NCBI RefSeq assembly: GCF_018263905.1 | Contig: NZ_JAAFZU010000043.1 | Coordinates: 1-41,311 of the forward strand | Direction of reading: 5' to 3' | Length of the DNA: 41,311 nt | Source of the DNA: Loktanella sp. SALINAS62 | GTDB taxonomy: Bacteria; Pseudomonadota; Alphaproteobacteria; Rhodobacterales; Rhodobacteraceae | In this document: positions 3,113 to 37,801 of the stretch, piece after piece | Layout: each line of letters begins with the position of its first letter | Position numbering within the stretch: position 1 is the stretch's first letter | Made by a program: the position numbers and the translations under genes | The notes under the pieces: generated by a model | What the model was told of the DNA's origin: nothing | The model's database searches: none | Seen by the model: only the letters and a program-made list of their open reading frames with translations

Positions 3113-3117
3113 TTTCT

Positions 3118-11283: not shown

Positions 11284-11318
11284 TTGCTATATTCCTCCCG
11301 GGTTTTGCAAATTGGTCA

Positions 11319-12356: not shown

Positions 12357-12550
12357 TTAGTTTCATAACACGATGCAACAGGGTCCTCGAATCCGTCAAG
12401 GCATTTCTGCACACAAGAGGTAAATTTCTGCACAAAGGGGGCAGGCAGGTAATAAAAGCGCTAAAAAACGATAGACGAAGCAGGAAAGTTCATGCACGAT
12501 GCAATGCAAATAGTTGCAGTATTTTGACTTACAGGAGAGGGATTGCTGCC
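12357..12550. promoter_or_regulatory. Divergent lacI / larA control region with candidate operators
   Basis: 194 bp between outward-facing operons. Three patterns stand out: an inverted repeat TGCAA-ATAG-TTGCA at 12505-12518; a direct repeat ATTTCTGCACA at 12403-12413 and 12424-12434, exactly 21 bp (two helical turns) apart; and AAAGCGCTAA around 12455-12464 with the central CG palindrome common in LacI-family operators. Which one binds the regulator is unknown. A ribosome-binding site GGAGAGG precedes larA. Confidence 0.45.
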
Positions 12551-14856: not shown

Positions 14857-16015
14857 ACCTGTCAGCCACCTTCATCTGGATGCCTTGGGCGGAATTGCGG
14901 GAGACATGTTCATCGCAGCGGCGCTGGACGCCGCCCCTTTCCTGTTGGACGAAGCTCAACATCTTGCGTCAGCCATTTCTCCCGACATTTCCATCGGTCT
15001 GGAAGACGCCAAAGACCATGGGCTGACGGGAAAGCGGCTAACTCTCACTCTGCCTGGCCAAAAGCGTGGTCCAAGGCATTACCCAGACTATCAGGCACTT
15101 TACCTTGGCGCACCCACCGACGCGGCCGTCATTGACCGAGCCTGCGATATTTTGCGACGGCTGGCCGTGGCAGAGGCCAAGATCCACGGTGTGGCACTGG
15201 ACCAGGTTCATTTCCACGAGATTTCCGATTGGGACTCGATCGTCGATATTCTTTTGTCGGCTTTGATAATTGAGAGGCTCAACGTCCGGTCCGCGAGCGC
15301 AGGGGCCTTGCCCCTCGGCTCTGGAACCGTTCGGACCGAACACGGGCCGCTGCCGGTCCCGGCGCCTGCAACGCTCGAAATCCTCAAGGGCGCAAGGTTT
15401 CACGATGATAGCGTTTCAGGTGAGCGTATCACGCCAACCGGTGCCGCGATCTTCAGCCACCTTTGCCCGACCGAAAGCCCGCCAGGCCAAGTGACGCTCA
15501 AAGCCATCGGTTACGGCTTTGGCACAAAGACCTTCGAAAAAATGGCCAATACCCTGCGTCTTAGCCTCTATCTTCCGGCAGGCCCCGCGGTGCGGGACAC
15601 TGTCGGTGCGATCGTTTTCCATGTGGACGACCAGACACCGGAGGACTTGGCGATTGGTTTGACCAACATTCGCGCCCAGCCGGGCGTCCTTGATGTCCAG
15701 CAGATGCCGAGCTTTGGCAAGAAGAACCGAATGGCGTCCCGCATCGAAGTGCTCTGTGACCCCGCTACTGTCGAGACTGTCGCACGCTACTGCTTTCTCG
15801 AGACTACCACGATCGGACTGCGCTACGGCATGGAAAGCCGGATCATCCTGCCCCGCGAAACCGGATTGGCGGTCGCGGATGACGCGAACGTGTGCACAAA
15901 GCGCAGCACCCGTCCCGACGGCTCGACCTCCACGAAGTCCGAAATGGACGATGTGGCGCGGGCGGGGAATGAAAGAGAGCGGCAAGCGCTGCGGCGCCGG
16001 ACCGAAAAAGATTAG
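14849..16015 (+). CDS. larC: LarC, nickel insertase for the pincer cofactor
   Basis: 388-residue homologue of LarC, which inserts nickel into the bisthiocarboxylate nucleotide in a CTP-dependent step. Conserved pieces are LDALGGIAGDMF near 8-19, QVHFHEISDWDSIVDIL near 115-131, LPVPAPATLEILKG and ERITPTGAAI. In L. plantarum larC is split by a programmed frameshift; here it is one frame. The GTG start at 14849 overlaps the dehydrogenase by eight bases. The last ~35 residues are charged and poorly conserved. With LarB and LarE it completes the cofactor pathway. Confidence 0.92.
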   Translation: MSEPVSHLHLDALGGIAGDMFIAAALDAAPFLLDEAQHLASAISPDISIGLEDAKDHGLTGKRLTLTLPGQKRGPRHYPDYQALYLGAPTDAAVIDRACDILRRLAVAEAKIHGVALDQVHFHEISDWDSIVDILLSALIIERLNVRSASAGALPLGSGTVRTEHGPLPVPAPATLEILKGARFHDDSVSGERITPTGAAIFSHLCPTESPPGQVTLKAIGYGFGTKTFEKMANTLRLSLYLPAGPAVRDTVGAIVFHVDDQTPEDLAIGLTNIRAQPGVLDVQQMPSFGKKNRMASRIEVLCDPATVETVARYCFLETTTIGLRYGMESRIILPRETGLAVADDANVCTKRSTRPDGSTSTKSEMDDVARAGNERERQALRRRTEKD

Positions 16016-16146: not shown

Positions 16147-16731
16147 TCACACCGCATCTGCAAGCAGCTCGGCAATGGCCACGTTCAGCGCCTCGATAGA
16201 AAAGAATTGTCGGTTGCGCAGGTGTGCCAGAATCCAGCGTTCCACGATCAAGACTGCGCCCTCGACCTTGCCCTTGTCGCGCGGCTTGCGTGGCTGCGTG
16301 GGCAGCACCGTCGTATCGTAATGAGCAGCCATATCGGAGAAGGTCTTGGTGACCGACGGCTCGAACCAAAACGGCTTGGCCACTGCCGCCTTGAGATTGT
16401 CGCACACGATCGCCTTGGGCACGCCGCCAAAGAACTTCAGCGCCCGAACCTGGGCGTCGATCCAGTCGGGCAGCTTCTGGCTGAGGCTGGCCCAGGCGAA
16501 GGTGTAATTGGAGGCGCCAAGCACTGCGACGAAAATCTGAGCGCGATGTTCCTGACTCGTCGCAGGATCGATCACAGGAATGGTGTGGCCGGCGTAGTCC
16601 GTCTGCATCACCGCGCTGAGCTTCAGCCGTGCTGCGACCTCACGCGCCGACAGACCTTGCTCATGCGTCAGCCGCAGTATGGATCGTATATCTTGCACAG
16701 TCGTGCGCCTCGCTTGCTTCTGTCTTGGCAT
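16147..16731 (-). pseudogene. istA: IS21 transposase IstA with internal and C-terminal deletions
   Basis: 194 residues instead of about 500. Residues 1-40 are the IstA helix-turn-helix (LTHEQGLSAREVAARLKLSA), joined directly to the DDE domain at VMQTDYAGHTIPVIDPAT. Roughly 90 residues normally between them are gone, without a frame change. The catalytic Asp45, Asp111 and Glu157 remain, but the protein ends after ELLADAV, where a full IstA continues with a long C-terminal domain. The product is almost certainly inactive. Confidence 0.82.
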
Positions 16732-17063: not shown

Positions 17064-17139
17064 GGTAATCCCCCCCGAAAGTAAGGGGCTGCGGAAGTAG
17101 AATTTTCTCGGCAAGATGCATGAGAAGATTCAGCTGAAG

Positions 17140-17397
17140 ATGACGAGATATACAGAACCCCAGATCCTTGCGATCCTGCGCCAAGCTGAAGGCGGTGTGC
17201 CAGTGGCTGAGCTTTGCCGCGAGCATGGGATGAGCAGCGCGTCGTTTTATAAGTGGCGGGCAAAGTATGGCGGTATGGATGCGTCCATGGTCAGCCAGAT
17301 GAAGGCCATGGAAGATGAGAACCTTCGGCTAAAGCGGATGTATGCGGACCTGAGCATGCAGGCGGATTTACTGAAAGAAGCCCTTGGGAAAAAGTGA
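17140..17397 (+). CDS. IS3-family transposase OrfA
   Basis: 85 residues. A helix-turn-helix (AELCREHGMSSASFYKWRAK) is followed by a leucine-rich coiled coil (MEDENLRLKRMYADLSMQAD), the standard IS3 OrfA that binds the ends and dimerises. It ends in GGGAAAAAGTGA, overlapping orfB by a few bases in the next frame, where a ribosomal shift would normally make the OrfAB fusion. The start could also be the ATG at 17116. Confidence 0.85.
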   Translation: MTRYTEPQILAILRQAEGGVPVAELCREHGMSSASFYKWRAKYGGMDASMVSQMKAMEDENLRLKRMYADLSMQADLLKEALGKK

Positions 17398-18219
17398 TTG
17401 GGCCGTCTCAACGCCGCGAGATGGCCGAGAATGCAGTGGCACGACGTGGGGCAAGCACCGCCCTGGCTTGCCGGGCCTTTGGGGTGAGTGAGACCTGTTG
17501 TCGGTATGGCCCGAAGTTGCGCGCCGAGAACGAAGAGATCGCTGGTCTGCTGACCGGGCTAACCGACGCCCGCAAGACGTAGGGGTTCGGCCTGTGTTTT
17601 CTGCATTTGCGCAATGTGAAGGGGCATCCATGGAACCACAAACGGGTTTATCGGATCTACTGTGAGCTGGAGTTGAACCTGCGGATCAAGCCGCGCAAGC
17701 GGTTGAAGCGCGACAAACCTGACGCTTTGGCGGTGCCTGAGGAACCAAATGTGACCTGGTCAATGGACTTCATGGCAGATCGCCTTGGGGATGGCAGGGC
17801 ATTTCGGTTGTTGAACGTGCTGGACGACTTCAACCGTGAAGGCTTGGGCATCGAGGTCGACTTTTCTTTGCCAGCTGAACGGGTCATCCGCAGTTTAGAC
17901 CGGATCATCGAATGGCGGCAAGCCAGGCACCATAAGGGTCGACAATGGCCCCGAATACATCAGTGAAACGCTGATGAAATGGGCGGAGAAACATGGGGTT
18001 ACTATCCAGCATATCCAACCGGGTCAGCCCCAGCAGAACGCATATATCGAGCGCTACAACCGCACCGTCCGGCATGAATGGCTCGACCAATACATCATCG
18101 AAAGCATCAAGGAGGCTCAAGATCACGCAACACAATGGTTATGGACTTACAACAACGACCGACCCAACATGGGCATTGGCGGCATCACTCCCGCCCAGAA
18201 ACTGAAAATGGCCGCATAA
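17394..18219 (+). pseudogene. IS3-family transposase OrfB, broken twice
   Basis: The integrase-like catalytic half of the transposase. The frame is interrupted by TAG at 17580-17582, where relatives have Trp (ARKTWGFG), and again near 17912 by loss of one base, after which the frame resumes as [20 protein letters not shown]. The three catalytic acids are still visible (MDFMAD, VDNGPEY, AYIERYN). With a nonsense codon and a frameshift it cannot be made whole. Confidence 0.85.
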
Positions 18220-18411
18220 GTTCTACGAATGCACCCCGCTAAAAATGGGGGATTACCAGAAGAAGAAGCGCTCCTCGGCGAGCAGAAGTCCTTACCGAGT
18301 ACAGGAAAGACAAACCTCGAACTGAATCCCGAGCACATCATGGCGAACGCAGTCATAGATTCCGAGCTGACGCTCGGCTTCATTGAGGGCTGCAAGACCG
18401 TGCGATATTTC

Positions 18412-19371
18412 CTAATCATTCAGAAAGCGGGCCGTATAAACTGCAAGTAGCTTCGCGCAGACGTTGGGTGGGCAACCGCGCCGCCACCTCGAGGGCTCAT
18501 ACTCAGGCGACCTTAATCGCCAAAACCGATCCACAAGAAACATATGTGGCACCGTCAGCGCAGCGAGACCTATGAATATGATGCGCATTGCAGTGCCATG
18601 TGACATTGCTTGGAAGCTGCCTTCGGTAACGAGAATGGCAGCAAGCGCGGCAATTGTGACAAGTCCTGATAAAACGACAGCCATATGCATCGCGCGTCGT
18701 GCCTGTGGAAGTGCGGTAAGCGTCGCCCGGAAGTGCCTCACAGAATGCAGGCCGCAAAAGTAGACCGCGAAGAACACAAGTGGAGGAAGAACCGCCGCGC
18801 TACACCACAAGATGATCTGCTCAATCGCAGCCTGACCGCGCGCCTGGGGCTTTAGGAGCAGCGTTCCGATCAGCAGACACAATGCCAACCCACCGCCGAC
18901 TGCGGCGACATCTGCGCAGACATCCGCCACGCCGGAAGGCGCAAGATAGGAAAACAGCCGCGTCACTGCGGAATGTTGCAACAGCGCTGGAGCGCCGATC
19001 GCCGCCAACCCGCCGGTCCAGCGCAAGGGCGACACCGCACGCGACCAGTCATCGGAAAAATGCACCACGGAATAAGACAGGAATGTGATCAGGGCGACAC
19101 CCGGCACCAAAACCCAGGCCGCAATTACGGTAGCCGCGAGCCCCAGATAGACGGTGACGAATTTCAATTTGCCGCGCCACCCCTTCAGTGGCCAGAGCGC
19201 TTCCGCGACGGGCAGGTCAAGAGCTCCGTGCGGCAGTCCAAGGATTACGATCAGTGGAGCCAACAGCAGCAATTGCCGCCCAAGGTCGAGGTTCAGCGTG
19301 AGCTGCAAGGTGCTGGCCATTGCAGCCGACGCAGCAAAAACGACTGTTTGCCAGATTGGCGCGGCGGTCAT
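18412..19371 (-). CDS. blh: Beta-carotene 15,15'-dioxygenase, Brp/Blh family
   Basis: 319-residue integral membrane oxygenase that cleaves beta-carotene into two retinals, the rhodopsin chromophore. Family histidines lie in GLPHGALD (near 45-52), VVHFSDDW (near 101-108), GLHSVRHF (near 213-220) and TVPHMFLVD (near 279-287); these coordinate the catalytic iron. About eight hydrophobic helices. The ATG overlaps the crtY stop by four bases, so it is the last gene of crtE-I-B-Y-blh. The ~30-residue charged tail after LVDRFWRL is atypical and may be altered by the nearby IS insertion. Confidence 0.92.
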   Translation of the reverse strand: MTAAPIWQTVVFAASAAMASTLQLTLNLDLGRQLLLLAPLIVILGLPHGALDLPVAEALWPLKGWRGKLKFVTVYLGLAATVIAAWVLVPGVALITFLSYSVVHFSDDWSRAVSPLRWTGGLAAIGAPALLQHSAVTRLFSYLAPSGVADVCADVAAVGGGLALCLLIGTLLLKPQARGQAAIEQIILWCSAAVLPPLVFFAVYFCGLHSVRHFRATLTALPQARRAMHMAVVLSGLVTIAALAAILVTEGSFQAMSHGTAMRIIFIGLAALTVPHMFLVDRFWRLRSPEYEPSRWRRGCPPNVCAKLLAVYTARFLND

Positions 19372-20477
19372 GCCCTGGTCAGCGCCGCGCGCAAGAACGG
19401 CATCGGCGGCAGCGAAGTCATGACAGAGAGCCGGTCCAACGGATGGGTCGAGCCTGACAGGAAGCGTTCCAGCCGGTCCGGCGGCGCGTTACGGAACAGG
19501 CTCTCGAACAAAGCCGGTCCACGGTCGGGCATCGTTTGTAGCACCTGAAGAAAGACCCGATCCATGAAACGGGTGGCTTGACTGTCCAGCATCGGCCGGG
19601 GTTTGGCCCCGCTTGCCAGTGCGTCTGCGACGTGATCGGCCTGTGCTTGGATGCGGGCGAAAGCATAGCCTGTCGAAGGCCGCGCAGCACCACCGCGCAG
19701 CCCCATGCGAATTACGCTATCATCGTCCGGCTCGGCGAATCCGACCTCCATCGGTAAAGCGCCGCTTTCCTGACGCAAAATCTCTACATCACCGGGATCC
19801 AAATCGGCAATTTCCGCATCCAACCACGCCGAAAAAACGCTCCCGCCGGGCGATGCTGGAGCGAACGAGGTTACCTCGACCAGAGCGCGATCCTGCGCAA
19901 ACGGCAGGGTGTAGACAAAGTCCACGCCTTCGCTGTACCCATTGCGAAATTGCATGAGATGGACCCGGTGCGCGTCGAATACCGGACGCTCTGTACGGAT
20001 CTCCCGCCCCAGAAAGAACTGCCCATAGGTCGGGACCCGGCGCGGGGAACGCGTATCAACCACGTGCCTCGCACTCAGCGTGCCTCTGTCGGTATCGACT
20101 TGGTGGCCATGAGCCGTCTTGCGCACCTTGCCTGCCGAAGTTGCGACGACGAGGTCAGCTGATGGCGAATCCGCAAGCATCGATTGCGCCCGGTCGTAGA
20201 ACGGCCCGGCGGCGACCGTCTCGTATCGAAGACCAGACGATCCACGGGCGACCAGCCCGCTTGGACCGGTGACGTCCCAATGAGTCCAAGATGCACGTAC
20301 GCAATCTTCAAACGGATCAGGGGCAGTGCGCCAAAAGCTCCATGCACGATCATCTGTGTAGACTTCACGGGGTTCAAGAACGCACAGGCTTTGCCCAGAC
20401 GATGCCAGACGCACCGCAAGACTGAGACCTGCGCAACCACCGCCGAGGATCGCAATATCCACATCAGGTCTCAGCAT
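19368..20477 (-). CDS. crtY: Lycopene beta-cyclase CrtY
   Basis: 369-residue FAD/NAD-binding cyclase that turns lycopene into beta-carotene. The dinucleotide fold ILGGGCAGLSLAVRL is near 9-23, and DDRAWSFW near 41-48 is a CrtY signature. Length fits bacterial CrtY (about 380). The ATG at 20477 overlaps the crtB end by 14 bases; the longer open frame upstream lies within crtB and is not used. It supplies the direct substrate of Blh. Confidence 0.93.
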   Translation of the reverse strand: MLRPDVDIAILGGGCAGLSLAVRLASSGQSLCVLEPREVYTDDRAWSFWRTAPDPFEDCVRASWTHWDVTGPSGLVARGSSGLRYETVAAGPFYDRAQSMLADSPSADLVVATSAGKVRKTAHGHQVDTDRGTLSARHVVDTRSPRRVPTYGQFFLGREIRTERPVFDAHRVHLMQFRNGYSEGVDFVYTLPFAQDRALVEVTSFAPASPGGSVFSAWLDAEIADLDPGDVEILRQESGALPMEVGFAEPDDDSVIRMGLRGGAARPSTGYAFARIQAQADHVADALASGAKPRPMLDSQATRFMDRVFLQVLQTMPDRGPALFESLFRNAPPDRLERFLSGSTHPLDRLSVMTSLPPMPFLRAALTRA

Positions 20478-21315
20478 GCTGCCGATCCTTCCAAGCCAAA
20501 ACTCGCGGGCGTAGACCCGACGCCGTGGCACCTGTAACCAAGAGAAACTTGCGCCAGGTCGGTACGAACACCCGACCCCTTGCAGGGTTGCAGGAATTGG
20601 CACGCAATTCGTCACCGATGCCCGCATACATCGCCGCCGCAGCCGTCACCGCCAGACGCAGACGCAGCGGCAGCGCAGGGAGACCCATGCGGCCCGACGC
20701 GTATAGTTGATCCGCTCGCGCAAGCAGTTTGCCTACAGCGCGGCGGACGTCCGCGTGCGCCTTTTGTCTGGCCCCTGCGATCGCATCAGGTTCGTGCGGA
20801 CACATTGTGTAGGGAAGATACCGACGGCCTGCTTGCGCGTCGGTCATCACATCACGGCAGATATTGGTCAGTTGCATGGCCTTGCCAAGGTCGGCGGCCC
20901 GCCTGTGCCATTGCGGATCGACCTCGAAAAGCGCACAGACCATGATGCCCACGGTCCCGGCCACGCCCATGCAATAATGATCGAGCTCTGCATCGGTGGC
21001 GATACAGGTTTCGGCAGTATCGGAAGCCAAGGTCTTTACCAACGCGGCAAAGCTCTCCAGTCCCAAAGGCTTGCCAGAAAACAGGGTACGGGCCTCGATG
21101 GCAAGCGGATCAGTGCCTGCTGCGCTGCGCAGATCGAGTTCCAGACGGGTCAGGCGCGCAGATATGTCAGGCCCGCCGACGGTGTCGGCCAGATCGTCCA
21201 GTGTGCGACATAAGGCATATAGTCGCGCGATCCGCCCTCGATCAGCACGTGACAGCGCCCTTGTGGCAGGCGCAAAGCTTCGAGCATGATAAGATAAAGT
21301 TTCTTGTGGCGTCAT
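20464..21315 (-). CDS. crtB: Phytoene synthase CrtB
   Basis: 283-residue squalene/phytoene synthase. It condenses two geranylgeranyl diphosphates to phytoene. The two Mg-diphosphate-binding motifs are visible: CRTLDDLAD near 36-44 and NICRDVMTDAQAGRRYLP near 151-168. It is slightly shorter than many CrtB proteins (about 300-350) but has both motifs. The ATG overlaps the crtI stop. Confidence 0.93.
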   Translation of the reverse strand: MTPQETLSYHARSFAPATRALSRADRGRIARLYALCRTLDDLADTVGGPDISARLTRLELDLRSAAGTDPLAIEARTLFSGKPLGLESFAALVKTLASDTAETCIATDAELDHYCMGVAGTVGIMVCALFEVDPQWHRRAADLGKAMQLTNICRDVMTDAQAGRRYLPYTMCPHEPDAIAGARQKAHADVRRAVGKLLARADQLYASGRMGLPALPLRLRLAVTAAAAMYAGIGDELRANSCNPARGRVFVPTWRKFLLVTGATASGLRPRVLAWKDRQHAET

Positions 21316-22817
21316 GCCAAGACCGCCGCCGGAACCAAAGTGTCAAGGACCTTCGCCGACGACACCACACCGGGCAGACCCGCACCGGGATGAGTGCCTG
21401 CTCCAACGAAATAGAGGTTTTGAACTCCCTCACCGCGATTGTGGAACCGGAACCACGCCGATTGCGTAAAGAATGGCGACAGGGAAAATCCAGCCCCGTC
21501 TACCGACAGATAGTCGGATTTGAAATTCTCAGGCGTCATGGCGAACTCGGCCGTGATTGTTTCGGCGAGCCCCGGCAACATGGACTCGTCTAGAGCTGCC
21601 ACAATCCGGTCGCGCAGCTTTGGTCCCTCGATTGACCAGTCCTGGCCACCTGCAAGGTTCGGTACGGGACAGAGCACATAGAAGCTGTCCTTTCCCTCGG
21701 GCGCAAAACTGGGATCGGTCGCGGTCGGTCGGTGGACGTAAAGAGAGAAATCCTCTGCCAGCAAATTGCGGTGGAAGATATCACTTAACAGCTCCTTGTA
21801 GCGTTCCCCAAACCAGACAGTGTGATGTGCAACGTCTGGCCATTGACGGTTGGCACCGAAGAACAGCACGTAAAGACCCATTGAAAGACGCCCATTGCTT
21901 GACCGCAATCGGACCAGTGGCGATTGCACACGAGCCGGTAGCATCTGGCGGTAGACATGGAGCGGATCCATGTTCGACACCACCACTTCAGCAGGTATTT
22001 CGTCTCCGTTATCCAGAACAACGCCGGTCGCGCGCTTACCATCCAAGCTGATGCGGTCGACGGTCGTGTTCAGGCTTATCAAAATGCCTTCTTCGCGTAG
22101 CAGCCGTTCTAGCGCATCGACCAGTGCACCGGTCCCACCCTTGGGAAACCATACCCCGTGGGTCCGCTCCAGATGGTTGATCATGCCGTATATGGCGGTG
22201 GTATCAAACGGGTTGCCCCCCACCAGCAAAGGCTGGATCGAAAAGGCGCGGCGCAGGCGTTCGTCTTTCAGGAACCGACCAACCATTGACCAGACGCTTT
22301 CGTAGGATCGCAGACGCAACAGGTGCGGAATCTGGCACAACATAAACCCGATCGAATGGAACGGTGCGGCGGCAAGCCGTTGGAACCCTACGTCATAGAT
22401 CTTCTTTGACCACGCACCCATGCGGCGATAACCGTCGACGTCGGATGGCGATAGGCGTTCAATCTCAGCCTCAGTTGCAGCTTCCGTGGGTCCATAATCG
22501 AAGGTTTCGCCATCGTGAAAGTGAAAGCGGTACCACGGGTCAGGTTCTATCAGTTCCACGTAATCGGACATCCGCTTGCCGAAGAGTGCGAACAGCTCCT
22601 CGAACAGGTGCGGCGCAGTCAGCACGGTCGGGCCCGCATCGTGTCGAAACCCCTCGTGTTCAAATACCTGCCCACGCCCGCCCAGCCGTGGACACCGATC
22701 AATAAGGTGCACATCATAGCCGCGTGCGCGCAACCGCAGGGCAGCAGCAATACCTCCGAAACCGGCCCCCGCCACGATGGCACGCGGCTGATCTTCGATC
22801 ATCGTGTCACGCGGCAT
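21312..22817 (-). CDS. crtI: Phytoene desaturase CrtI
   Basis: 501-residue FAD-dependent desaturase that takes phytoene to lycopene. The N-terminal FAD fold (VAGAGFGGIAAALRLRARGY) and the C-terminal signature (VGAGTHPGAGLPGVVSSAK) are intact. The start at 22817 has AGGAG with seven-base spacing inside the crtE end; a second ATG at 22802 has a poorer site. It overlaps crtE by 11 bases and crtB by four, so the operon is tightly coupled. Confidence 0.93.
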   Translation of the reverse strand: MPRDTMIEDQPRAIVAGAGFGGIAAALRLRARGYDVHLIDRCPRLGGRGQVFEHEGFRHDAGPTVLTAPHLFEELFALFGKRMSDYVELIEPDPWYRFHFHDGETFDYGPTEAATEAEIERLSPSDVDGYRRMGAWSKKIYDVGFQRLAAAPFHSIGFMLCQIPHLLRLRSYESVWSMVGRFLKDERLRRAFSIQPLLVGGNPFDTTAIYGMINHLERTHGVWFPKGGTGALVDALERLLREEGILISLNTTVDRISLDGKRATGVVLDNGDEIPAEVVVSNMDPLHVYRQMLPARVQSPLVRLRSSNGRLSMGLYVLFFGANRQWPDVAHHTVWFGERYKELLSDIFHRNLLAEDFSLYVHRPTATDPSFAPEGKDSFYVLCPVPNLAGGQDWSIEGPKLRDRIVAALDESMLPGLAETITAEFAMTPENFKSDYLSVDGAGFSLSPFFTQSAWFRFHNRGEGVQNLYFVGAGTHPGAGLPGVVSSAKVLDTLVPAAVLA

Positions 22818-23643
22818 CCAATAACTCCTGCAAGGCGCGGTCCATTTGGTCGGCGAGGTTGCAATAGGCCTGCCCTGACCCGGCAGGCAATTGGGCTGCG
22901 AGGATACGCATCTCCTGCAGCGCCTCGCGCGCTTCGCGACGGGCTTCACACGCCGCCTCGATCGAGCTGGCGCCATTGGCTTCGAGGATCAGGCAGATAT
23001 TGACGCTACCGATGGCAAGATCGGCCTCGCGGTCTTTAATGTCGTCAAGCACTTGGTAGGCGATGGCGAGCCGCGCGCCGATAGCTTTGGCGGTCTGGTC
23101 GCCGGGGGCACCTGCGGCGCTAAGGGCAAGACGCATGGGCAACGCCAGCAAGGGACCGCTTTTTGCCATGGCGATACTTTTATATTCTCTAAGCGACCCG
23201 GCACGCGCGCGTAGATCTTCAGACTGGCCTTGTGTAGTCCGACTGATGGCATCGTGCATGATCTTGAGCGCGCGTGCCGGGTCCGGGTGTGCAGCAAGAC
23301 TGGCGTAGGCGGCCGACATCATTAAATCACCAACGCAGATTGCAGTCGCTACGTTGAACTTCTGCCAAACCGTTGGCCGATTTCGGCGCGTTTTGTCGGC
23401 ATCTTGCACGTCGTCATGCACAAGAGATGCGTTATGCAATAATTCCGATGCCGCAGCGCAGGACAGCGCGGTGGTGGTGTCGAGGCCAAGCCTCGCCGCC
23501 GCATCCAGCGCAATTTGAGCACGGATCCGGCCACCGCCGCCGTTCATGTGATGCGCCGCAGCCTCTGCTACAAGGCCGCTTCCCAGAAGGTCGCGCATCA
23601 GCGCCTCAGTCGCCTGGTCCCCACGGAGTTGCTGATGTGTCAC
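22807..23643 (-). CDS. crtE: Geranylgeranyl diphosphate synthase CrtE
   Basis: 278-residue trans-prenyl diphosphate synthase. The first aspartate-rich motif is LVHDDVQDADKTRR (near 74-87) and the second is YQVLDDIKDREADL (near 196-209). It supplies GGPP to CrtB and is the first gene of the retinal operon. The start is GTG at 23643 with GGAGC eight bases upstream. Context, not sequence alone, argues for C20 rather than C15 product. Confidence 0.9.
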   Translation of the reverse strand: MTHQQLRGDQATEALMRDLLGSGLVAEAAAHHMNGGGGRIRAQIALDAAARLGLDTTTALSCAAASELLHNASLVHDDVQDADKTRRNRPTVWQKFNVATAICVGDLMMSAAYASLAAHPDPARALKIMHDAISRTTQGQSEDLRARAGSLREYKSIAMAKSGPLLALPMRLALSAAGAPGDQTAKAIGARLAIAYQVLDDIKDREADLAIGSVNICLILEANGASSIEAACEARREAREALQEMRILAAQLPAGSGQAYCNLADQMDRALQELLDAA

Positions 23644-23861: not shown

Positions 23862-24680
23862 TCAGCCGCGCTGTGAGCCTGCTTCGGAACGGCTTTGAAT
23901 GATCGCAACCTGACTCAGCATCAGTCCGAACACGGCTTTGGAGACCACATCCGAAAATGTATAGCCCAGCTGGCGTATCACCACCCAGTCGGCGGACTGA
24001 TTGATCCCAGGAATGCCGGGGACAAGGTAGACGAAGCCGTAGATAAACCACGTAACAATGAGGAGCGTCCACGCCCGGCTCATCCACGGTTGGGCATCCT
24101 GCGATAGGGATTCAAGACCCGTTTTCACGCTGTCGTTGGCCACGTAGAGCAAGTAGAAGAACACAAGCCAAGACAGTCCACCCCAGATCCAGAATCCGGC
24201 GCCCGACCCTTGAACAAAGCCAGCAACCTGCGGCTCGTAGTATTGACCGATGTAGCCGAGAATGATCATTGCGGCGCCTGCGATCGTCAGCTTTGCCCAA
24301 CGCTTCATGAACTCCGCGCCAGCAAACTGCAGGACAACAAGAAATTGTGTCAGAAGCATCGGCACGTCGATCAGCCAGTTCGCGTAGCGGTAGCCATTTG
24401 CAAAGATCTGCCCTTCTGCTCTGGTGTAGACCATTTGCTCCGCGTCGTAGGTAAAGCTCGAGTTCCACATCAGGTAAAGTAGACCGAGCTCGATTGTCGC
24501 CGAAACCATGACGACACCTGAGATATAGAAAGTGCGTCGGTATTTTTTTGTCGCTTCACTTGCCGTCAGAACAAAGTAGAGCAGTGCTGCGGCAAAAACT
24601 GCGGCAGTGAAACTGAAAGCGTGACGAATAACCTCGTATTGCCAATATTCAAAAACAAAGAAATTTTCATAATTTGGCAT
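23862..24680 (-). CDS. Microbial rhodopsin with NDQ motif (predicted light-driven Na+ pump)
   Basis: 272-residue seven-helix rhodopsin. Helix C reads RYANWLIDVPMLLTQ, giving Asn101, Asp105 and Gln112 where proton-pumping proteorhodopsins have Asp, Thr, Glu. This is the NDQ triad of sodium pumps; against KR2 (N112, D116, Q123) the offset is a constant 11, and Arg98 fits R109. Lys248 in FSDVVSKAVFG carries retinal and Asp244 fits KR2 Asp251. His20 fits the KR2 oligomer-interface His30. Leu109 occupies the colour-tuning site, suggesting green absorption. Start at 24680 by AAGGA. Retinal is made by the adjoining crt-blh operon. Ion specificity is inference from motif. Confidence 0.93.
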   Translation of the reverse strand: MPNYENFFVFEYWQYEVIRHAFSFTAAVFAAALLYFVLTASEATKKYRRTFYISGVVMVSATIELGLLYLMWNSSFTYDAEQMVYTRAEGQIFANGYRYANWLIDVPMLLTQFLVVLQFAGAEFMKRWAKLTIAGAAMIILGYIGQYYEPQVAGFVQGSGAGFWIWGGLSWLVFFYLLYVANDSVKTGLESLSQDAQPWMSRAWTLLIVTWFIYGFVYLVPGIPGINQSADWVVIRQLGYTFSDVVSKAVFGLMLSQVAIIQSRSEAGSQRG

Positions 24681-24833: not shown

Positions 24834-25289
24834 TTAGTCTGTGCTGTTCGCGTTTTCGACATCGGTTTCTGTGCGTTCACGTGTGTTGTCGCCAGTCTCC
24901 AGAGAGGAGACAATGCTGCGTGCCACTGTTTCGTGTGGCATCACCACCTCATCAAGACCAAGTTCTTCGCAGATCGGCAAAAGCTCTGGCCGAATTATTT
25001 GGACCACAATGCGTTCGACCCCGATCGACCGCCCGACAGCGGCGCCCAGAATGTTTGCCTCATCATGATTGGTAAGCATCATGAGGACGTCTGCCCCGTC
25101 GCCTATCGCTTCCCGCAGGATGGAAGGTAGCGTGCCATCTCCATGAACCAGACCGCATTCAACTTCGTCGGAAATGTCGTCAAGCCGTTCCCGGCTTTGG
25201 TCCACCAGGACCGCCTCGTGCCCTTTGTCCATAACCTGCTTAAGGGTGGCGACCCCGAAGCGCGACGCGCCAACGACGATGATACGCAT
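24834..25289 (-). CDS. trkA: TrkA-type K+ channel regulatory subunit, single RCK N-domain
   Basis: 151-residue cytoplasmic protein with one TrkA-N Rossmann domain (about 1-125). It has the usual LVDQSRERLDDIS after strand 2 and HGDGT after strand 3. The glycine motif is GASRFG, with Ser at the usual middle Gly. There is no TrkA-C domain and only half of the classical TrkA, so it resembles a minimal regulator that gates TrkH by nucleotide binding. The last 20 residues are charged and variable. Start at 25289 by AAGGAG; it begins one base after the trkH stop. Confidence 0.85.
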   Translation of the reverse strand: MRIIVVGASRFGVATLKQVMDKGHEAVLVDQSRERLDDISDEVECGLVHGDGTLPSILREAIGDGADVLMMLTNHDEANILGAAVGRSIGVERIVVQIIRPELLPICEELGLDEVVMPHETVARSIVSSLETGDNTRERTETDVENANSTD

Positions 25290-25290
25290 G

Positions 25291-26760
25291 TTATTGTCTC
25301 CTTTTCGATGCCAGGTACCTTCCACGGATCCAGGTTTTGGGCAGAAAAATCGCTATAAGCGCGATAAATTCCAAGCGGCCAAGCAGCATCGCCACGAGCA
25401 GAACTGACACAAGGTGTGGCGGCAGGTCTGGCGCCGTGATGCCTGACGACAATCCGACGGTTGAGACCGCTGAAACGACTTCGAACAAGGCTGGCAGAGC
25501 TGGCTGCGAGGCTGCAAGAAAGATGCTCCAGCAAATTAAAACCGTGGCGATATAAAGGACCAGAACGGCACCTGCGGCTGTAATGTCATCGCTGGTCTGA
25601 CGCTTTCCCCGATCCCGGAGATGAAGCACTCCGTGCGTCGGCAATAGTAAACGATGGAAGCTTAGGCGCACCATCTGGATAGCAACGGCGATACGGCCAA
25701 TTTTCATACCGCCTGAGGTAGAGCCAATATCGCCTCCGATCACCATTCCCACGAGCAGCAGCACGACCAGAAGTGGTGATGAAGAAACCGGTGCCGCGCT
25801 GAACCCCGCTGTCGTCAAACCACTGATGAAATTCAGGCTGCCTTCAATGACCGTTGCATCGGTATCGGGAAAAAGAAGTGCAGACACAAAGGCATAAAGG
25901 AGCGTTCCGGCGCAAACCACACCGATGTAAAGAACCACGTGACCGCTTGCGATGGCCTTCCGGAACCCGGCGCGCCAGAGCATAATGTAGAACAGAAATG
26001 ACACCGAGCTCATGACGCAGATCCCCATTACGAAGACCTGCGCGGCGACAGAATAGCTGGCGAGGCTATCGGCCTGTGGGGTGAACCCACCTGTCGAAAC
26101 TGATGCCAGCGCGATCGAAACCCCCTCCCACCATGTCGGGAGCAAAAAAAGACAACCCGCTACCGCAACGCCAGTGAGAGCGCCGTAGAAGGCCAGTAAA
26201 AGCTGCGCATGCTTGCGCATTGATGTCATCTTGTCACGCTCTTCGAGAGTGGACTGACCAAGTTCGCGCAACGCCGAAGTGTGGTCGTGCAGAATTGTCA
26301 GGCCGGCAAAGGCCAAAGCGAATCCGCCACACCATTGGAGCCAGCCCCGCAGCAGATGTGCTGCAACGGGCCACACTGTCGCATCGCGCGCCACAGACAG
26401 CCCAGTCGAGGTAATGCCTGACGTCGCCTCGAAAAACGCGTTCAAAGGTGACATTCTTAAAGCCAAAAAAGGCGGTGTCGAAATGAGGCAGGCAAGTAGA
26501 AACAGTGTTGCGAATAATACCACCGCTTCAATGCGCCGTGTGAATTTCGGCGCCGGGCGTTTATAGCTCGTGACCGAAATCGCCAACAGCACAGCCGATT
26601 GGGGCGCCAGCGCTGCGAATAAACCCCAGCTTCCGAGCGCCGCTGAGACAAGGCAGGGCGGAAGCACTACCGCAGAAAGCACCGGAGCTTGTTTCAAGCA
26701 AAGTCCGACGACGACACTGAACCGCGCAGAGTGGACCGCACCAAGCCTGCTCAAATACAA
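25291..26760 (-). CDS. trkH: TrkH-type potassium uptake protein
   Basis: 489-residue membrane protein of the TrkH/KtrB family. The four pore-loop repeats with selectivity glycines are visible: SGITSTGLS, SVSTGGFT, SGLTTAGFS and SAVSTVGLS. The Gly in each lines the K+ filter. It is translated with trkA as a pair. The start is uncertain: the first codon is TTG at 26760, an in-frame TAA lies three codons further up, and no good ribosome-binding site is seen; IS debris lies directly upstream. K+ influx driven by membrane potential fits the adjacent ion-pumping rhodopsin. Confidence 0.87.
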   Translation of the reverse strand: MYLSRLGAVHSARFSVVVGLCLKQAPVLSAVVLPPCLVSAALGSWGLFAALAPQSAVLLAISVTSYKRPAPKFTRRIEAVVLFATLFLLACLISTPPFLALRMSPLNAFFEATSGITSTGLSVARDATVWPVAAHLLRGWLQWCGGFALAFAGLTILHDHTSALRELGQSTLEERDKMTSMRKHAQLLLAFYGALTGVAVAGCLFLLPTWWEGVSIALASVSTGGFTPQADSLASYSVAAQVFVMGICVMSSVSFLFYIMLWRAGFRKAIASGHVVLYIGVVCAGTLLYAFVSALLFPDTDATVIEGSLNFISGLTTAGFSAAPVSSSPLLVVLLLVGMVIGGDIGSTSGGMKIGRIAVAIQMVRLSFHRLLLPTHGVLHLRDRGKRQTSDDITAAGAVLVLYIATVLICWSIFLAASQPALPALFEVVSAVSTVGLSSGITAPDLPPHLVSVLLVAMLLGRLEFIALIAIFLPKTWIRGRYLASKRRQ

Positions 26761-26851
26761 AACCGCTTATTCATTTTCATGAACAACAAACGCCGACTGT
26801 GATCGACAGTTCCCAGTTACCGAGATATGGGCAAAAGTTGGTGACGCCTGA

Positions 26852-26970
26852 TCAGGCGGCGGCTTGAAGTTGGCGGATCCCGTCGCGGAACTCAACCCCT
26901 TGGACGATCTCTGGAATGCCAATTGATCGAGCGGAGTCGGGCCATCTTGCCGCACCTCCGGAACGCCGCC
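26852..26970 (-). pseudogene. Probable transposase C-terminal scrap
   Basis: A short frame ends IPEIVQGVEFRDGIRQLQAAA at the TGA (26852-26854), followed by a sequence that looks like an IS end (GAGATATGGGCAAAAGTTGG, 26822-26841) and a 12-bp perfect palindrome GCCTGATCAGGC at 26846-26857. I think this is the tail of an insertion sequence, but I cannot name the family. It sits immediately upstream of trkH. Confidence 0.3.
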
Positions 26971-27191: not shown

Positions 27192-27507
27192 CGCGGATTC
27201 TGCACCATAAAAGTATCTGTCGAGTCTGACTGCCCTGCCTGCCTGATAGAGTGGTTGATAGTGTCCACCATCGATAGATTGGATGGTTGCCGCCCTCCCC
27301 AGACGGCATCGCAATGTGCCAAAATGGTGGTCTGTAGGCCATTGTACAGAGAGGACTCATAATCCCGCACATTGACACAGCGAGGCATAGGAGAATGCGC
27401 TGGAGAGGGTCTCGTCGAGGAATATCTCGCGACCCAGTTAAATCCGATTGAAAGCACGTTCGCCACCGTCCGGCACCATCTAACACGTCGGCCTGAACCA
27501 CTGACGT
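27192..27507. other. Spacer with an IS256 transposase scrap
   Basis: No intact gene. At 27435-27479 on the plus strand, TQLNPIESTFATVRHH matches the well-conserved NPIESTFATVR motif of IS256-type transposases; flanking codons show no related sequence, so only a fragment of a few dozen bases survives. Confidence 0.55.
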
Positions 27508-29999: not shown

Positions 30000-32162
30000 T
30001 CAATCGATCGCTATGGTGCGCAACGTTCCGGCGTCGCGCATCAGCACGGTGCCCGAATCCGTCGCGGCGATAACGAAACGGCCCGATATGGACAGCGGAA
30101 CGCGCGTCTCCGCGCCCTCCCATTCGAACGTCGGCGTCGATCCGCCGCCCTCGCGCATCGTGTGCTCGATATCGAACCGCAGGGCAGTTCCGGCGAGCCG
30201 CAGGCGCCCCTCGACCGTCCCGCCGCTCATCCGCTCGATCGTCACCGTGCCGGCCACGGCCTCGGGCATGACCATCTGGCTCTGCCCGGTGAAGGCTTCC
30301 TGATAGGGAATATAGTCGTAGAACGTGCCTTCGTATCGGCTGAAGATCGGGGCGAAGTCCGCGCCCTGCAGCCCGGTGAGCCGCGCCGGGTAGCTTCGCC
30401 CTTCCTCCAGGTCGTCCTCGGACACACCGATCAATTGCACGTGCACCTGCGCCTTCGCGTTCGCGGGCCAGCCCTCCCAGCCGTCATGGGCGACCGACAT
30501 GCCGTCGAACCCGCCACCCATGACCGTGACCGGGGCTGGGGTGAAGAGGGAGATCACCAGATCGCCGCCAGCGCCACCGGGTCCCATGGCGGCCAGCGGA
30601 TCGGCGCAGGCCAGCCCACCCGCGCGGATCCCGCCAAGTCTTAATTCGAGCGCGCCGATCGTGGGTTCGATGGCGGGCGATCCGCCGCCCAGTATGCCTC
30701 CCAAAAGCTCGCGGAGCTCGTCAGGAAGGTCGTCACCGGCACCCACGCCCGCCGCGAAGGCACCGAGCATCTTGTACATCTGCGGGTTGCTCAGGGCCTC
30801 CATCGTCTCCGCATCGCAAAGGCCGACCTCGCGCACGTCCACCTCCAGCTCGTAGAGGGCCGAGGCAAGCTCCGCTTGGGGCCGCGGCGCGAGCGCAACG
30901 CCCGCGTTGAACGTGCGGTCCGTGTCCGAGGGAAAGAAGATCAGGCTGGCCTGCAGCATTCCCTTCACCGTCCGGTGCAGGTCACCGTCCACGATCAGGT
31001 GCAGATCGGGCATCTTCTCCTCGACGTTCGGCCTGGCGGTGAGCGTGACCCTGACGGGACGGGCGTGCTGCGGAACATCAATGGTCCAGCCATGAGTAGC
31101 AAGGGGGTGAACCCGGCGGTCGGGAAAGCCGATCATGGCACCGACACGCCCCTTCGCGGTCCTCGCCTCGCGAAAAAGCCGGTCCATCCGCGCGCCCTCG
31201 GTGACAATCGTGCGCATGATCTCGGGGTAGAAATGATTGAGGCCGCGCGGATGATGCACCCGCAGCGCCTGGTCCAGCGCGGCGGCGACCTTGCCACGTT
31301 CGTTTGCCGCCGGGGCCGTAATGGAGGTGTAGAGAAGGTCCAGCGTCACCATCGCCCGGCTCGTGGGTCTGAAGTGCGGATTGCCGCCCGTTCCGCCGCG
31401 CGCAAGCGCCTCGGCGAGGCGGGTGAACAGGATGGCGTTCGACCGCCCGCGGTCGCCTCTCTCCGATCCGCTCGGGTTCTCCCGGGGCTCGCAGCTCGTG
31501 TCGATCTCGGTTCCCGACAGTCCGCCGCCGGCCTCGCGATCCTCGGGAATATGCCACGGAACGTCGAAGTCCCGCCCCGGAACGGCCGGCCGCCCACGGT
31601 AATTCAGGGCGAGAAGGCCGCCCGCTGCCCCGGCCAGCCCCTCCTGCAGCCACAGCGCGCAACTGCCAGCCTGATCGGGTCCGGCAGCGTAGCCCGCAGC
31701 GGCGCCGGAATAGAGCGCATGGCCCACCTGGCTGAGATTCGCGGGGTCCGTCGGGTCGCCCGGTCCGCCATCCGTCACCCTCGCCAGGAATCGGTCGAGC
31801 GCGACGAAATGATGGGCCAGCGGGGTCTGTCGCCAACGTCCCCCGGTCGCTCCCATGTCGTAAATGGTCAGTACATCATTGCTCTGGCCTAGTCGGGGTG
31901 GAGGGACCGCGTGCATCGCGAACCATTCCGATGCAACGGCGACCAGCGCCGTCCAATACGCCTTTTCCTCGTCGACCCCGCTGCTGTCCGGCTCCGAGCA
32001 AGGGCCAAGGAGTTCGCTTGGCAATCCGAGCATTTGTCGGTCGGACGCGGTGGTAAAGGCCGAGTCGCAGGAAAAGATGACATCGTTTGGCCAGGTCTCC
32101 GCCCTCGCCGGAGAGAGCGTGCAGCAACAGGCCGCGAGAGCCGCTGTCAGCACCTTCTTCAT
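30000..32162 (-). CDS. Secreted 720-residue protein of unknown function
   Basis: A signal peptide (about 1-21, ending PARA-E) precedes a long periplasmic or surface protein. WLQEGLAGAAGG at 171-182 resembles the W(L)xEG(L)A helix of gluzincin (peptidase MA-like) metalloproteases, but no HExxH is found upstream; PLAHHFVALDRF at 114-125 is the nearest His-rich helix. So it may be a degenerate or non-catalytic relative. The C-terminal half is Gly/Pro-rich with beta-type sequence. Cys pairs (C32, C55, others) could form disulfides. The ATG overlaps the stop of the upstream gene, so they are translated together. Confidence 0.6.
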   Translation of the reverse strand: MKKVLTAALAACCCTLSPARAETWPNDVIFSCDSAFTTASDRQMLGLPSELLGPCSEPDSSGVDEEKAYWTALVAVASEWFAMHAVPPPRLGQSNDVLTIYDMGATGGRWRQTPLAHHFVALDRFLARVTDGGPGDPTDPANLSQVGHALYSGAAAGYAAGPDQAGSCALWLQEGLAGAAGGLLALNYRGRPAVPGRDFDVPWHIPEDREAGGGLSGTEIDTSCEPRENPSGSERGDRGRSNAILFTRLAEALARGGTGGNPHFRPTSRAMVTLDLLYTSITAPAANERGKVAAALDQALRVHHPRGLNHFYPEIMRTIVTEGARMDRLFREARTAKGRVGAMIGFPDRRVHPLATHGWTIDVPQHARPVRVTLTARPNVEEKMPDLHLIVDGDLHRTVKGMLQASLIFFPSDTDRTFNAGVALAPRPQAELASALYELEVDVREVGLCDAETMEALSNPQMYKMLGAFAAGVGAGDDLPDELRELLGGILGGGSPAIEPTIGALELRLGGIRAGGLACADPLAAMGPGGAGGDLVISLFTPAPVTVMGGGFDGMSVAHDGWEGWPANAKAQVHVQLIGVSEDDLEEGRSYPARLTGLQGADFAPIFSRYEGTFYDYIPYQEAFTGQSQMVMPEAVAGTVTIERMSGGTVEGRLRLAGTALRFDIEHTMREGGGSTPTFEWEGAETRVPLSISGRFVIAATDSGTVLMRDAGTLRTIAID

Positions 32163-32923
32163 TCGACCGTGATCTCCGCCTCGGCCAGCACTTCAAGCGA
32201 CGGCACGGCGACGTATTGAAGAAGGTATCGGCCTGGCAGCTCCGGCGCGGTCAGCGTCATCGCCTCGTCAGTGCCGCGCTGGCGCTGCATGGCCCATCCG
32301 GGTCGCCCGTCGTCGATACCGACGAAATCGTCGCTCGGATCGTCAGGCACGACTGGCAGGAGCACGTCGATCGGCGCGCCGGGCGCGAAGGAGTGAACCA
32401 CGCGCAGCTGCGCGGGCGGGCTGGGTCCAGTGTCGCCGGGCGCGGAGACAATCACGTCATCGTCCGGAAGAAGCGTCGAGCCATCGAGAGTGACGGCGCC
32501 GGGCATGGCTCTCTCTGTCTGCGGCGGCCCCGGCTCCTCGCGGTTCATGCGCTCCATCACCACGTCGATCAATCCGGAATTGTCGGGGGTCAGCAACAGA
32601 TAGGCGGACACCGGTTCGCCATCGCGCAGCGTGGCGCGGTGCTCGGCTGCGGCACCGCTGGAAATCTCCCATACGGTAACGCGGTATGCGCCCGCCGGCA
32701 GGTTGAAGGTCATGGACGGCAAGGCACCATGCTGTTCGGCAAGGCTGAAATTGCCCGGTCCTTCGATGACCCAGCGCGTATCGCCCGACGGCGGAGCCTG
32801 CTCGAAGCTTTGCGGATTCAGCACCGAAATATCGAGCGTCAGCTCCGCGGTCGCGGCCGGAGTAGCCGCAAGGAAGCAGATCGAAGCCGCCATAATCAAA
32901 GGGTTTGGGAACATTTTGCGCAT
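32159..32923 (-). CDS. Secreted protein sharing domains with the VWA protein
   Basis: 254 residues from the ATG at 32923, chosen because a signal peptide (ending AATA-E) then starts properly. The N-terminal domain contains FNLPAGAYRVTVWEIS, similar to the LLPGTYTATVLWTRT region of the VWA protein at 35255-37729. The C-terminus ends MTLTAPELPGRYLLQYVA, which matches the end of the VWA repeat (LVMPGEPGSYELRYVA). It thus looks like a VWA-less relative with one repeat. Function unknown. Divergent from the LuxR gene and coupled to the 720-residue gene. Confidence 0.65.
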   Translation of the reverse strand: MRKMFPNPLIMAASICFLAATPAATAELTLDISVLNPQSFEQAPPSGDTRWVIEGPGNFSLAEQHGALPSMTFNLPAGAYRVTVWEISSGAAAEHRATLRDGEPVSAYLLLTPDNSGLIDVVMERMNREEPGPPQTERAMPGAVTLDGSTLLPDDDVIVSAPGDTGPSPPAQLRVVHSFAPGAPIDVLLPVVPDDPSDDFVGIDDGRPGWAMQRQRGTDEAMTLTAPELPGRYLLQYVAVPSLEVLAEAEITVE

Positions 32924-32985
32924 CGCGTAAACATTGCAACGACAGATCGTTTCCATCCATGGGGCGAATGCCCTATCAAAGACCC

Positions 32986-33933: not shown

Positions 33934-34003
33934 GGCGATATCCCTATGCGCTATCCGAGAATTTGCACGACACTTTAGTTTTAATCCACTGGAGACCGTC
34001 GAC

Positions 34004-34780: not shown

Positions 34781-34783
34781 GCG

Positions 34784-35248: not shown

Positions 35249-35254
35249 GCCACA

Positions 35255-37729: not shown

Positions 37730-37755
37730 CGCGGAGCGGCGAAAGTCGTCGTCCC

Positions 37756-37799: not shown

Positions 37800-37801
37800 T
37801 G

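What the first reader, a model, noticed from the sequence alone, without database searches (positions are those of the whole stretch)
23862..24680. Predicted sodium-pumping (NDQ) rhodopsin in a Rhodobacterales-like genome
Seen: Asn101, Asp105, Gln112, Lys248, Asp244 and Arg98, each at a constant offset from the KR2 positions. Known: the NDQ triad marks light-driven Na+ pumps, while most alphaproteobacterial rhodopsins are DTE/DTK-type proton pumps. Inference: this strain pumps Na+ with light, and likely gained the gene by transfer, given the IS debris on both sides.
Basis: partly seen in the sequence, partly recalled or inferred. Interest (0 to 1): 0.85.

Follow-up and report, generated by a model that had tools for sequence, protein, structure and literature searches.

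The report
Plasmid light-driven sodium pump gene cluster
A marine-type bacterium carries, on what looks like a plasmid, a complete kit for a light-driven sodium pump (the pump, the genes that make its retinal, and a potassium-uptake pair beside it); the pump belongs to a known group, while the potassium-uptake neighbour is a testable association that I did not find reported.

Summary
The ORF is real, intact and on the MINUS strand (24680..23862, 272 aa). All six named residues are present, but the offset to KR2 is 11 in helix C and 7 in helix G, not constant. The protein falls inside the NDQ clade, in 'Subgroup 2' of Podoliak 2024 (extra counterion E64). Nearest characterised relatives: ErNaR and, very probably, JsNaR. 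Like JsNaR it has Gly at the helix-F colour switch, so red-shifted Na+ pumping (near 550 nm) is predicted, not measured. It heads a full retinal operon (crtE-I-B-Y-blh). The contig carries repABC and a relaxase; IS remnants lie on both sides. The genome has a second rhodopsin operon, of DTE (proton-pump) type.

Beyond the finding: (1) a divergent TrkG/TrkA K+-uptake pair lies just upstream; a TrkH-family gene lies within 2.5 kb of 4 of 8 E64-type, 3 of 79 L/I64-type and 0 of 43 DTE rhodopsins examined; (2) its retinal genes group with those of a DTE operon from another genus, so the pump seems to have been swapped in. The rhodopsin is a new member of a known kind; the K+ link is inferred from linkage only.

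The parts
23862..24680 (-). NDQ rhodopsin, Subgroup 2 (E64) light-driven sodium pump, 272 aa; G215 at the helix-F colour switch, F51 at the KR2 N61 position
22807..23643 (-). crtE, polyprenyl (GGPP) synthase
   Evidence: Pfam polyprenyl_synt E 2.8e-42
21312..22976 (-). crtI, phytoene desaturase (called start overlaps crtE; the true start is probably internal)
   Evidence: TIGR02734 564 bits, above cut-off
20464..21315 (-). crtB, phytoene synthase
   Evidence: Pfam SQS_PSY E 2.3e-50
19368..20627 (-). crtY, lycopene cyclase (called start overlaps crtB; the true start is probably internal)
   Evidence: Pfam Lycopene_cycl E 1.1e-58
18412..19371 (-). blh, beta-carotene 15,15'-dioxygenase, makes retinal
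   Evidence: TIGR03753 165 bits, above cut-off 95
24834..25325 (-). TrkA-like (RCK N domain only) regulatory subunit of K+ uptake, 163 aa as called
   Evidence: Pfam TrkA_N E 2.7e-20; 46% to D. shibae, 55% to G1577
25291..26760 (-). TrkG/TrkH-family K+ transporter, divergent subfamily; four filter-like motifs kept (TSTGL, STGGF, TTAGF, STVGL)
   Evidence: Pfam TrkH E 5.4e-32; TIGR00933 170 bits vs cut-off 331; tree; motifs, their role as filter recalled
17064..18263 (.). IS3-family element (about 1.2 kb), left border of the cassette
   Evidence: about 84% over 1.2 kb to plasmid copies, one annotated IS3; rve domain in 17607-17966
16147..16731 (-). IS21 transposase fragment
   Evidence: NF033546 174 bits, above cut-off 160
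26822..26914 (.). IS256-like fragment, right border
   Evidence: 92.5% over 93 bases to an annotated IS256 transposase
27210..27326 (.). second short match at the right border, possibly from a mobile element
   Evidence: 84.6% to an unannotated stretch of a Roseicitreum plasmid record with three places

Best explanation
A Subgroup 2 NDQ rhodopsin: light isomerises retinal on K248, the Schiff-base proton moves to D105, Na+ enters from the cytoplasm past the F51/S256 region and leaves outward. E64 next to D105 should keep D105's pKa low, so pumping is expected to be little affected by pH (as in ErNaR). G215 in helix F should shift absorption towards 550 nm (as in JsNaR). Retinal is supplied by the co-directional crtE-I-B-Y-blh genes. 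As a less certain addition (about 0.35-0.4), the TrkG/TrkA pair upstream is proposed to use the membrane potential made by Na+ export to take up K+, a light-powered Na+-out/K+-in system. Shown by sequence: residues, clade, gene order, plasmid genes on the contig. Inferred: Na+ transport, colour, co-transcription, functional link to Trk. The confidence given is for the sodium-pump part.
For: NDQ and Subgroup 2 residues present: E64, L68, R19, D102 replaced by Q91 (criteria from PMC11006869). Clade placement. Fold. JsNaR, a natural NaR of J. seosinensis with Gly at this switch, is reported as a Na+ pump with lambda-max 550 nm, its Gly-to-Pro mutant 523 nm (PMC6491443 passages); that species' NDQ protein (L004) is 58-59% identical to the query and has the Gly. 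Full retinal pathway. TrkH-family gene within 2.5 kb: 4 of 8 E64-type, 3 of 79 L/I64-type, 0 of 43 DTE rhodopsins. The window TrkH subfamily (over 130 bits) is in 5 of 8 genomes with an E64-type NaR and in 0 of the other 44 genomes (next score 92 bits).
Against: No transport or spectrum measured. F51 sits where KR2 has N61; in KR2 bulky residues there change ion selectivity (review PMC10608830), so strict Na+ selectivity is not assured. The close relative L174 (76% identity) has no Trk gene within about 9 kb, nor do L004 and L006. A D. shibae plasmid carries the same TrkG/TrkA pair with no rhodopsin in the 20.8 kb shown and no rhodopsin hit on its plasmids (its chromosome was not searched), so the pair is not exclusive to sodium pumps. 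Three of the four E64-type Trk neighbours are from one order. 76 of 79 L/I64-type NaR have no Trk neighbour in the DNA held. A 153-base gap between TrkA and the rhodopsin leaves co-transcription open; promoter scan uninformative.
Confidence: 0.85

Rival explanations
1. The rhodopsin is a sodium pump, but the Trk pair is a chance neighbour, one more accessory ion gene on a plasmid built by IS insertions.
For: TrkG/TrkA stands apart from any rhodopsin on D. shibae pDSHI02; the closest NaR relative L174 has none nearby; this genome has four TrkH loci plus a fragment, so chance neighbours are not negligible.
Against: 0 of 43 DTE controls have a TrkH within 2.5 kb; linkage occurs in four lineages (this genome, Parvularcula and its order, Lewinella, Cyclobacterium-like) in three kinds of arrangement; the TrkH subfamily co-occurs with E64-type NaR in 5 of 8 genomes, including G1577 where the genes are not neighbours.
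Confidence: 0.45
2. The pump moves other cations as well (K+, H+) because Phe51 replaces the KR2 N61 filter residue.
For: F51 in window, L174 and L003; KR2 N61L is listed with K+ and N61Y with K+/Cs+ pump activity, N61W as dead (review table).
Against: ErNaR has Ala and L004 has Ser at this position and ErNaR and JsNaR are reported Na+ pumps, so N61 is not required in Subgroup 2; the review notes that the structure of a filter mutant (G263F) conflicts with the size-filter idea.
Confidence: 0.15
3. The sodium pump was not swapped into the retinal operon; an ancestor had a tandem sodium pump plus proton pump (as in L003) and lineages lost one or the other.
For: L003 has NDQ, then DTE rhodopsin, then crtE-I-B-Y-blh in one run.
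Against: No remnant of a DTE rhodopsin found in the 218-base NaR-crtE gap of the window or in the L174 gap (best E 0.38); NDQ genes are rare in the family (2 of 374 genomes), so many losses would be needed.
Confidence: 0.3

Closest known systems
ErNaR (Erythrobacter sp. HL-111), Subgroup 2 NDQ rhodopsin, PDB 8QLE/9TBD
   Same: NDQ, E64, R19, L68, no KR2 D102; TM 0.93, 48% identity
   Different: ErNaR has Pro at the helix-F switch and Ala at the KR2 N61 position; the window protein has Gly215 and Phe51
JsNaR (Jannaschia seosinensis), natural red-shifted Na+ pump, 550 nm
   Same: the NDQ protein of that species (L004) has Gly at the G/P switch, Ser247 and E64; 58-59% identity
   Different: Ser instead of Phe51; no Trk or retinal gene found in the flank held. 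That L004 is JsNaR is inferred from species and residues: the paper numbers the Gly 216, L004 gives 215
KR2 (Krokinobacter eikastus), Subgroup 1
   Same: NDQ, H30, S70, R109, D251, K255 all kept
   Different: KR2 has Leu74 instead of E64, and Pro219, N61, D102; 38% identity
DTE rhodopsin-crtE-I-B-Y-blh operon (contig C47 of this genome; G003, G008, G1516)
   Same: same gene order after the rhodopsin; crtI 73-84% identical
   Different: DTE (proton-pump type) rhodopsin, about 30% identical, in the first position
TrkG/NAD-binding protein pair of Dinoroseobacter shibae plasmid pDSHI02
   Same: same subfamily and gene order, 39% and 46% identity
   Different: no rhodopsin or retinal genes in the 20.8 kb shown

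Membership tests
NDQ sodium-pumping rhodopsins | R109, N112, D116, Q123, D251, K255 (KR2 numbers) | tested here: met
   R98, N101, D105, Q112, D244, K248
NDQ sodium-pumping rhodopsins | phylogenetic placement with NDQ, apart from DTE rhodopsins | tested here: met
   66-row tree, 9 E64 rows one group, SH-aLRT 94; 27 DTE rows apart, 99
NDQ sodium-pumping rhodopsins | light-driven outward Na+ transport | not testable with these tools
   needs expression and assay
Subgroup 2 NaR (Podoliak 2024) | Glu at KR2 L74 | tested here: met
   E64
Subgroup 2 NaR (Podoliak 2024) | KR2 D102 absent or replaced; extra Arg at ErNaR R19 | tested here: met
   Q91 and R19; criteria from PMC11006869
Red-shifted NaR (G/P switch) | non-proline at KR2 P219 | tested here: met
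   G215; Pro in 78 of 78 L/I64-type NDQ rows with a residue read there (one broken row has none) and in 41 of 41 DTE rows
Red-shifted NaR (G/P switch) | absorption near 550 nm | not testable with these tools
   spectrum needed
Trk/Ktr K+ uptake, broad family | TrkH Pfam family and four filter-like motifs | tested here: met
   PF02386 above cut-off; four motifs
Canonical Trk (curated NCBIfam models) | TIGR00933 and TrkA model cut-offs | tested here: not met
   170 of 331 bits; best TrkA model 105 of 293 bits, N domain only; hence 'TrkG/TrkH-like', divergent
Functional NaR-Trk unit | co-transcription and light-dependent K+ uptake | not testable with these tools
   only linkage and co-occurrence were tested

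The most novel reading that the evidence does not exclude
The cassette TrkG-TrkA-NaR-crtE-I-B-Y-blh is a transferable, plasmid-borne light-driven Na+/K+ exchange unit: the rhodopsin exports Na+, the electrical gradient drives K+ in through a TrkG subfamily that keeps company with sodium-pumping rhodopsins, while a second, DTE proton-pump rhodopsin in the same cell handles the proton gradient. This would be a two-component, light-powered analogue of the Na+/K+-ATPase, with TrkH-type genes having joined sodium pumps independently in several lineages.
Probability: 0.35. Interest if true: 0.75.

Novelty: new member of a known kind. Interest (0 to 1): 0.45.

Why it matters
What bacteria use sodium-pumping rhodopsins for is, to my knowledge (recalled), still debated; one metagenome paper suggests keeping internal Na+ low in salt-adapted cells (PMC4766312, passages). 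A recurrent K+-uptake neighbour, absent beside the DTE rhodopsins examined, gives a concrete test (light-powered ion homeostasis). The retinal operon also appears as a platform in which the pump gene is exchangeable, and the protein is a further natural Gly215 pump, a candidate red-shifted, pH-tolerant optogenetic tool.

Tried and rejected
Reading on the + strand: stops. A proton-pump or chloride-pump reading: the motif is NDQ, not DTE or NTQ, and DTE rows and most NTQ rows lie apart in the tree (two NTQ rows, L075 and L076, fall among L/I64-type NDQ). A broken gene: the frame is intact, pLDDT 94. NaR on known plasmids: only two weak hits (27%, Polymorphobacter). A shared origin of the two NaR operons (window and L174): their crt/blh genes as one clade rejected, p-AU 8e-43 on two trees; a leftover DTE gene between NaR and crtE: none found. 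Na+-NQR as a partner for a Na+ cycle: no nqrF above cut-off in any of 13 genomes searched, this one included. Promoter and terminator scan: close to chance (6 against 3.9 expected, 10 against 9.7). Flanking repeats: nothing over 23 bases and none bounding the cassette.

Literature for a NaR-Trk link: 0 papers; 3 papers, of which one, also the only one (PMC4094778), was looked at in passages: Salinivibrio, proton-pump type rhodopsins, trk genes 'dispersed', no link stated; the other two were seen as listings only. One search gave one paper (PMC4766312, passages), with 0 occurrences of 'Trk'. 'Trk' also has 0 occurrences in the main text of PMC11006869, PMC5118547 and PMC10608830. One search (NDQ, rhodopsin, Alphaproteobacteria) gave 0 papers although such papers exist, which shows how narrow a word search is; the library holds only open-licence PMC papers, so absence is not proof. 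Papers seen: PMC11006869 outline, abstract, passages and one section; PMC6491443, PMC8514524, PMC5118547, PMC7979833, PMC10608830, PMC4094778, PMC4766312 in passages; others in listings only.

Left out of the neighbour counts: 19 short genome-search loci. Most were fetched again as longer stretches, are window copies or hold only TrkH genes; three (L040, L041, L042, weak rhodopsin hits of G054, G044, G055) were not fetched again (no TrkH in them). Also 3 duplicates (L064, L066, L077). Five pieces of the broken L073 and L074 genes are not counted; one further piece of L073 is among the 79 L/I64-type. Controls were fetched in part: 20 of 61 weak Cyclobacteriaceae hits (the first 20 or so by rank that were not cut short), 5 of 17 weak Balneolales hits, 18 of 26 hits plus L005 for two more and 5 weak ones plus one piece left, and 2 new of 28 Saprospiraceae hits (both NTQ; a third is L008, 25 weak ones left). 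Some loci are cut by contig ends; L003 begins 519 bases before its NaR, L176 about 1.2 kb before its rhodopsin.

Full report
1. Observation. The interval holds an intact gene on the minus strand, ATG at 24680, stop at 23862, 272 aa. It is a Bac_rhodopsin (PF01036, E 1.1e-30). The claim of one constant offset to KR2 is not right: 11 in helix C, 7 in helix G.

2. What the protein is. The best solved relatives are the sodium pumps ErNaR (E 5e-74) and KR2 (E 8e-48). An AlphaFold2 model from 18 aligned sequences has mean pLDDT 94.2 and matches ErNaR best (TM 0.93, 1.5 A, 48% identity), then KR2 (0.90, 38%). In a 66-row tree (short search, SH-aLRT only) the nine E64-type rows form one group (94), with window next to L174 of genome G1577 (82, not strong), then L003 (95), L006 (88), L004 (98) and ErNaR (97); the 27 DTE rows are apart (99). 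The protein meets the stated criteria of Subgroup 2: Glu at KR2 L74 (E64), no D102 (Q91), Arg at R19; it also has Leu at Q78, as ErNaR (PMC11006869). According to that paper ErNaR pumps Na+ with little dependence on pH and shows negligible proton currents without Na+.

3. Colour and filter. Helix F has Gly215 where KR2 and ErNaR have Pro. Among rows with a residue read there, Pro is found in 78 of 78 L/I64-type NDQ and 41 of 41 DTE; of 7 E64-type rows 4 have Gly (window, L003, L004, L006), 2 Thr, 1 Pro; L174, read, also has Gly. The natural Gly pump JsNaR of J. seosinensis absorbs at 550 nm and its Gly-to-Pro mutant at 523 nm; KR2 P219G absorbs at 535 nm (PMC6491443, passages) and is called the least red-shifted of the P219X set (PMC8514524, passages). 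So the shift of the window protein could be smaller than JsNaR's. The J. seosinensis protein found here (L004) also carries E64, so JsNaR very likely belongs to Subgroup 2, although PMC11006869 states that only SrNaR of that subgroup had been studied. At the KR2 N61 filter position the window, L174 and L003 have Phe; KR2 variants with bulky residues there move K+ or fail (review table), so selectivity should be tested.

4. Retinal supply and second rhodopsin. Downstream on the same strand lie crtE, crtI, crtB, crtY and blh, the route from prenyl diphosphates to retinal. The genome holds a second rhodopsin, on contig C47, with DTE motif and the same crtE-I-B-Y-blh order. Of eight same-genus genomes two have a rhodopsin match, both DTE with that operon, and six have none.

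5. The sodium pump in the proton pump's slot. A tree of concatenated crtI-crtB-crtY-blh from 10 operons puts the window operon with the DTE-rhodopsin operon of G1516 (100/99) and the other NaR operon (G1577, L174) with the DTE-rhodopsin operon of G1405 (100/100); joining the two NaR operons is rejected (p-AU 8e-43 on two trees, model-dependent; DTE motifs of G1516 and G1405 read). Yet the two NaRs are each other's nearest rows (73-76% identity). The simplest reading is that the pump gene was exchanged at the head of the retinal operon more than once. The NaR gene's GC (0.523) is below that of the crt and blh genes (0.585-0.613). A tandem ancestor with losses, as L003 suggests, is the rival; no remnant of a DTE gene was found.

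6. Mobility. The window is the first 41.3 kb of a 76.8-kb contig that carries RepA-type, RepB and RepC homologues, a MobA/VirD2-like relaxase, a TraG/TraD-type coupling protein and ArdC; the best-listed matches of its repABC are roseobacter plasmids. The contig is therefore probably a plasmid (not closed). An IS3 element (17064-18263) and an IS21 fragment flank the left, an IS256-like fragment (26822-26914) and another short match (27210-27326) the right, so the unit TrkG to blh (26760-18412) lies between mobile-element remains.

7. The Trk neighbours. Directly upstream, same strand, are TrkG/TrkH-like and TrkA-like genes that overlap by 35 bases as called; TrkA ends 153 bases before the rhodopsin. 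In the fetched loci a TrkH gene lies within 2.5 kb of 4 of 8 E64-type NaR (window, L005, L078, L079; not L003, L004, L006, L174), 3 of 79 L/I64-type (L008, L035, L070), 1 of 9 NTQ (L005, with the NaR between) and 0 of 43 DTE (41, plus L175 and L176; all eight Glu64 read, L079). Requiring 2.5 kb of sequence on both sides unless a TrkH is present gives 4 of 6 (4 of 7 with L174), 3 of 59 and 0 of 35. 4 of 8 against 0 of 43 gives p about 3e-4 by hand arithmetic (one search printed 1.5e-4 for 4 of 7, and 0.045 for all NDQ, 7 of 87, against 0 of 52); these ignore relatedness. L005, L078 and L079 are of one order and L035 and L070 near copies, so independent events are about four, in three arrangements (upstream, downstream, divergent). 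Searching the window TrkH in 52 genomes, the only matches above 130 bits were itself, G1577 (43%), G1011, G1001 and G423 (30-33%), all with an E64-type NaR; the next was 92 bits. The three other E64-type genomes (G421, G422, G424) lack it. These five, with D. shibae TrkG (plasmid, no rhodopsin near), form one group (92/90, not starred) apart from the other TrkH rows. The TrkH genes beside the Bacteroidota pumps are of another, Ktr-like branch, so the linkage is not of one TrkH subfamily throughout. G1577 carries TrkG/TrkA as a pair on another contig.

8. Mechanism proposed. Light drives Na+ export (well supported by homology); the resulting potential drives K+ uptake by TrkG/TrkA (inferred from linkage and co-occurrence only). 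Whether TrkG here is Na+- or H+-coupled or a gated channel is unknown.

9. Verdict. The finding is correct in essence: a new member of Subgroup 2 NDQ sodium pumps. What deserves follow-up is the Trk association, the pump exchange in the retinal operon and the plasmid context. I found no paper that reports a NaR-Trk link (with passages in 98 and 99; open PMC library only).

Noticed in passing
L044 (G000:C47), rhodopsin 10484-11311: Second rhodopsin of the same genome, DTE type, with its own crtE-I-B-Y-blh operon: two full rhodopsin-retinal sets in one cell.
   Followed up: partly
L004 8016-8831: The J. seosinensis NDQ protein (probably JsNaR) has Glu64, so it belongs to Subgroup 2, although the 2024 paper says only SrNaR of that subgroup had been studied.
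   Followed up: partly
L008, L035, L070: KR2-type sodium pumps of Lewinella and Cyclobacterium-like genomes have divergently transcribed TrkH genes next door.
   Followed up: partly
L003 520-2882: A MAG labelled Halomonas has an E64-type sodium pump and a DTE rhodopsin in tandem ahead of crt and blh genes; the bin label may be wrong.
   Followed up: no
L009 2281-3042: A contig labelled Thalassobius carries a KR2-type rhodopsin that groups with Flavobacteriaceae; transfer or misbinning.
   Followed up: no
L073, L074: NDQ rhodopsin genes of two Cyclobacteriaceae genomes are split over several frames, probably decaying.
   Followed up: no
window 3-278 and G000:C98 end: C-terminal piece of a TrkH at the contig start and an N-terminal piece at the end of contig C98: perhaps one gene cut by a contig break.
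   Followed up: no
window 30000-38000: Block of higher GC (0.63-0.69) with a VWA-domain protein and long unassigned ORFs, unlike the rest of the window.
   Followed up: no
window 12269-16015: Lactate-racemase-like (Lar_N) and nickel-insertion genes; TctA/TctC-type transporter genes lie further left (1595-4670).
   Followed up: no
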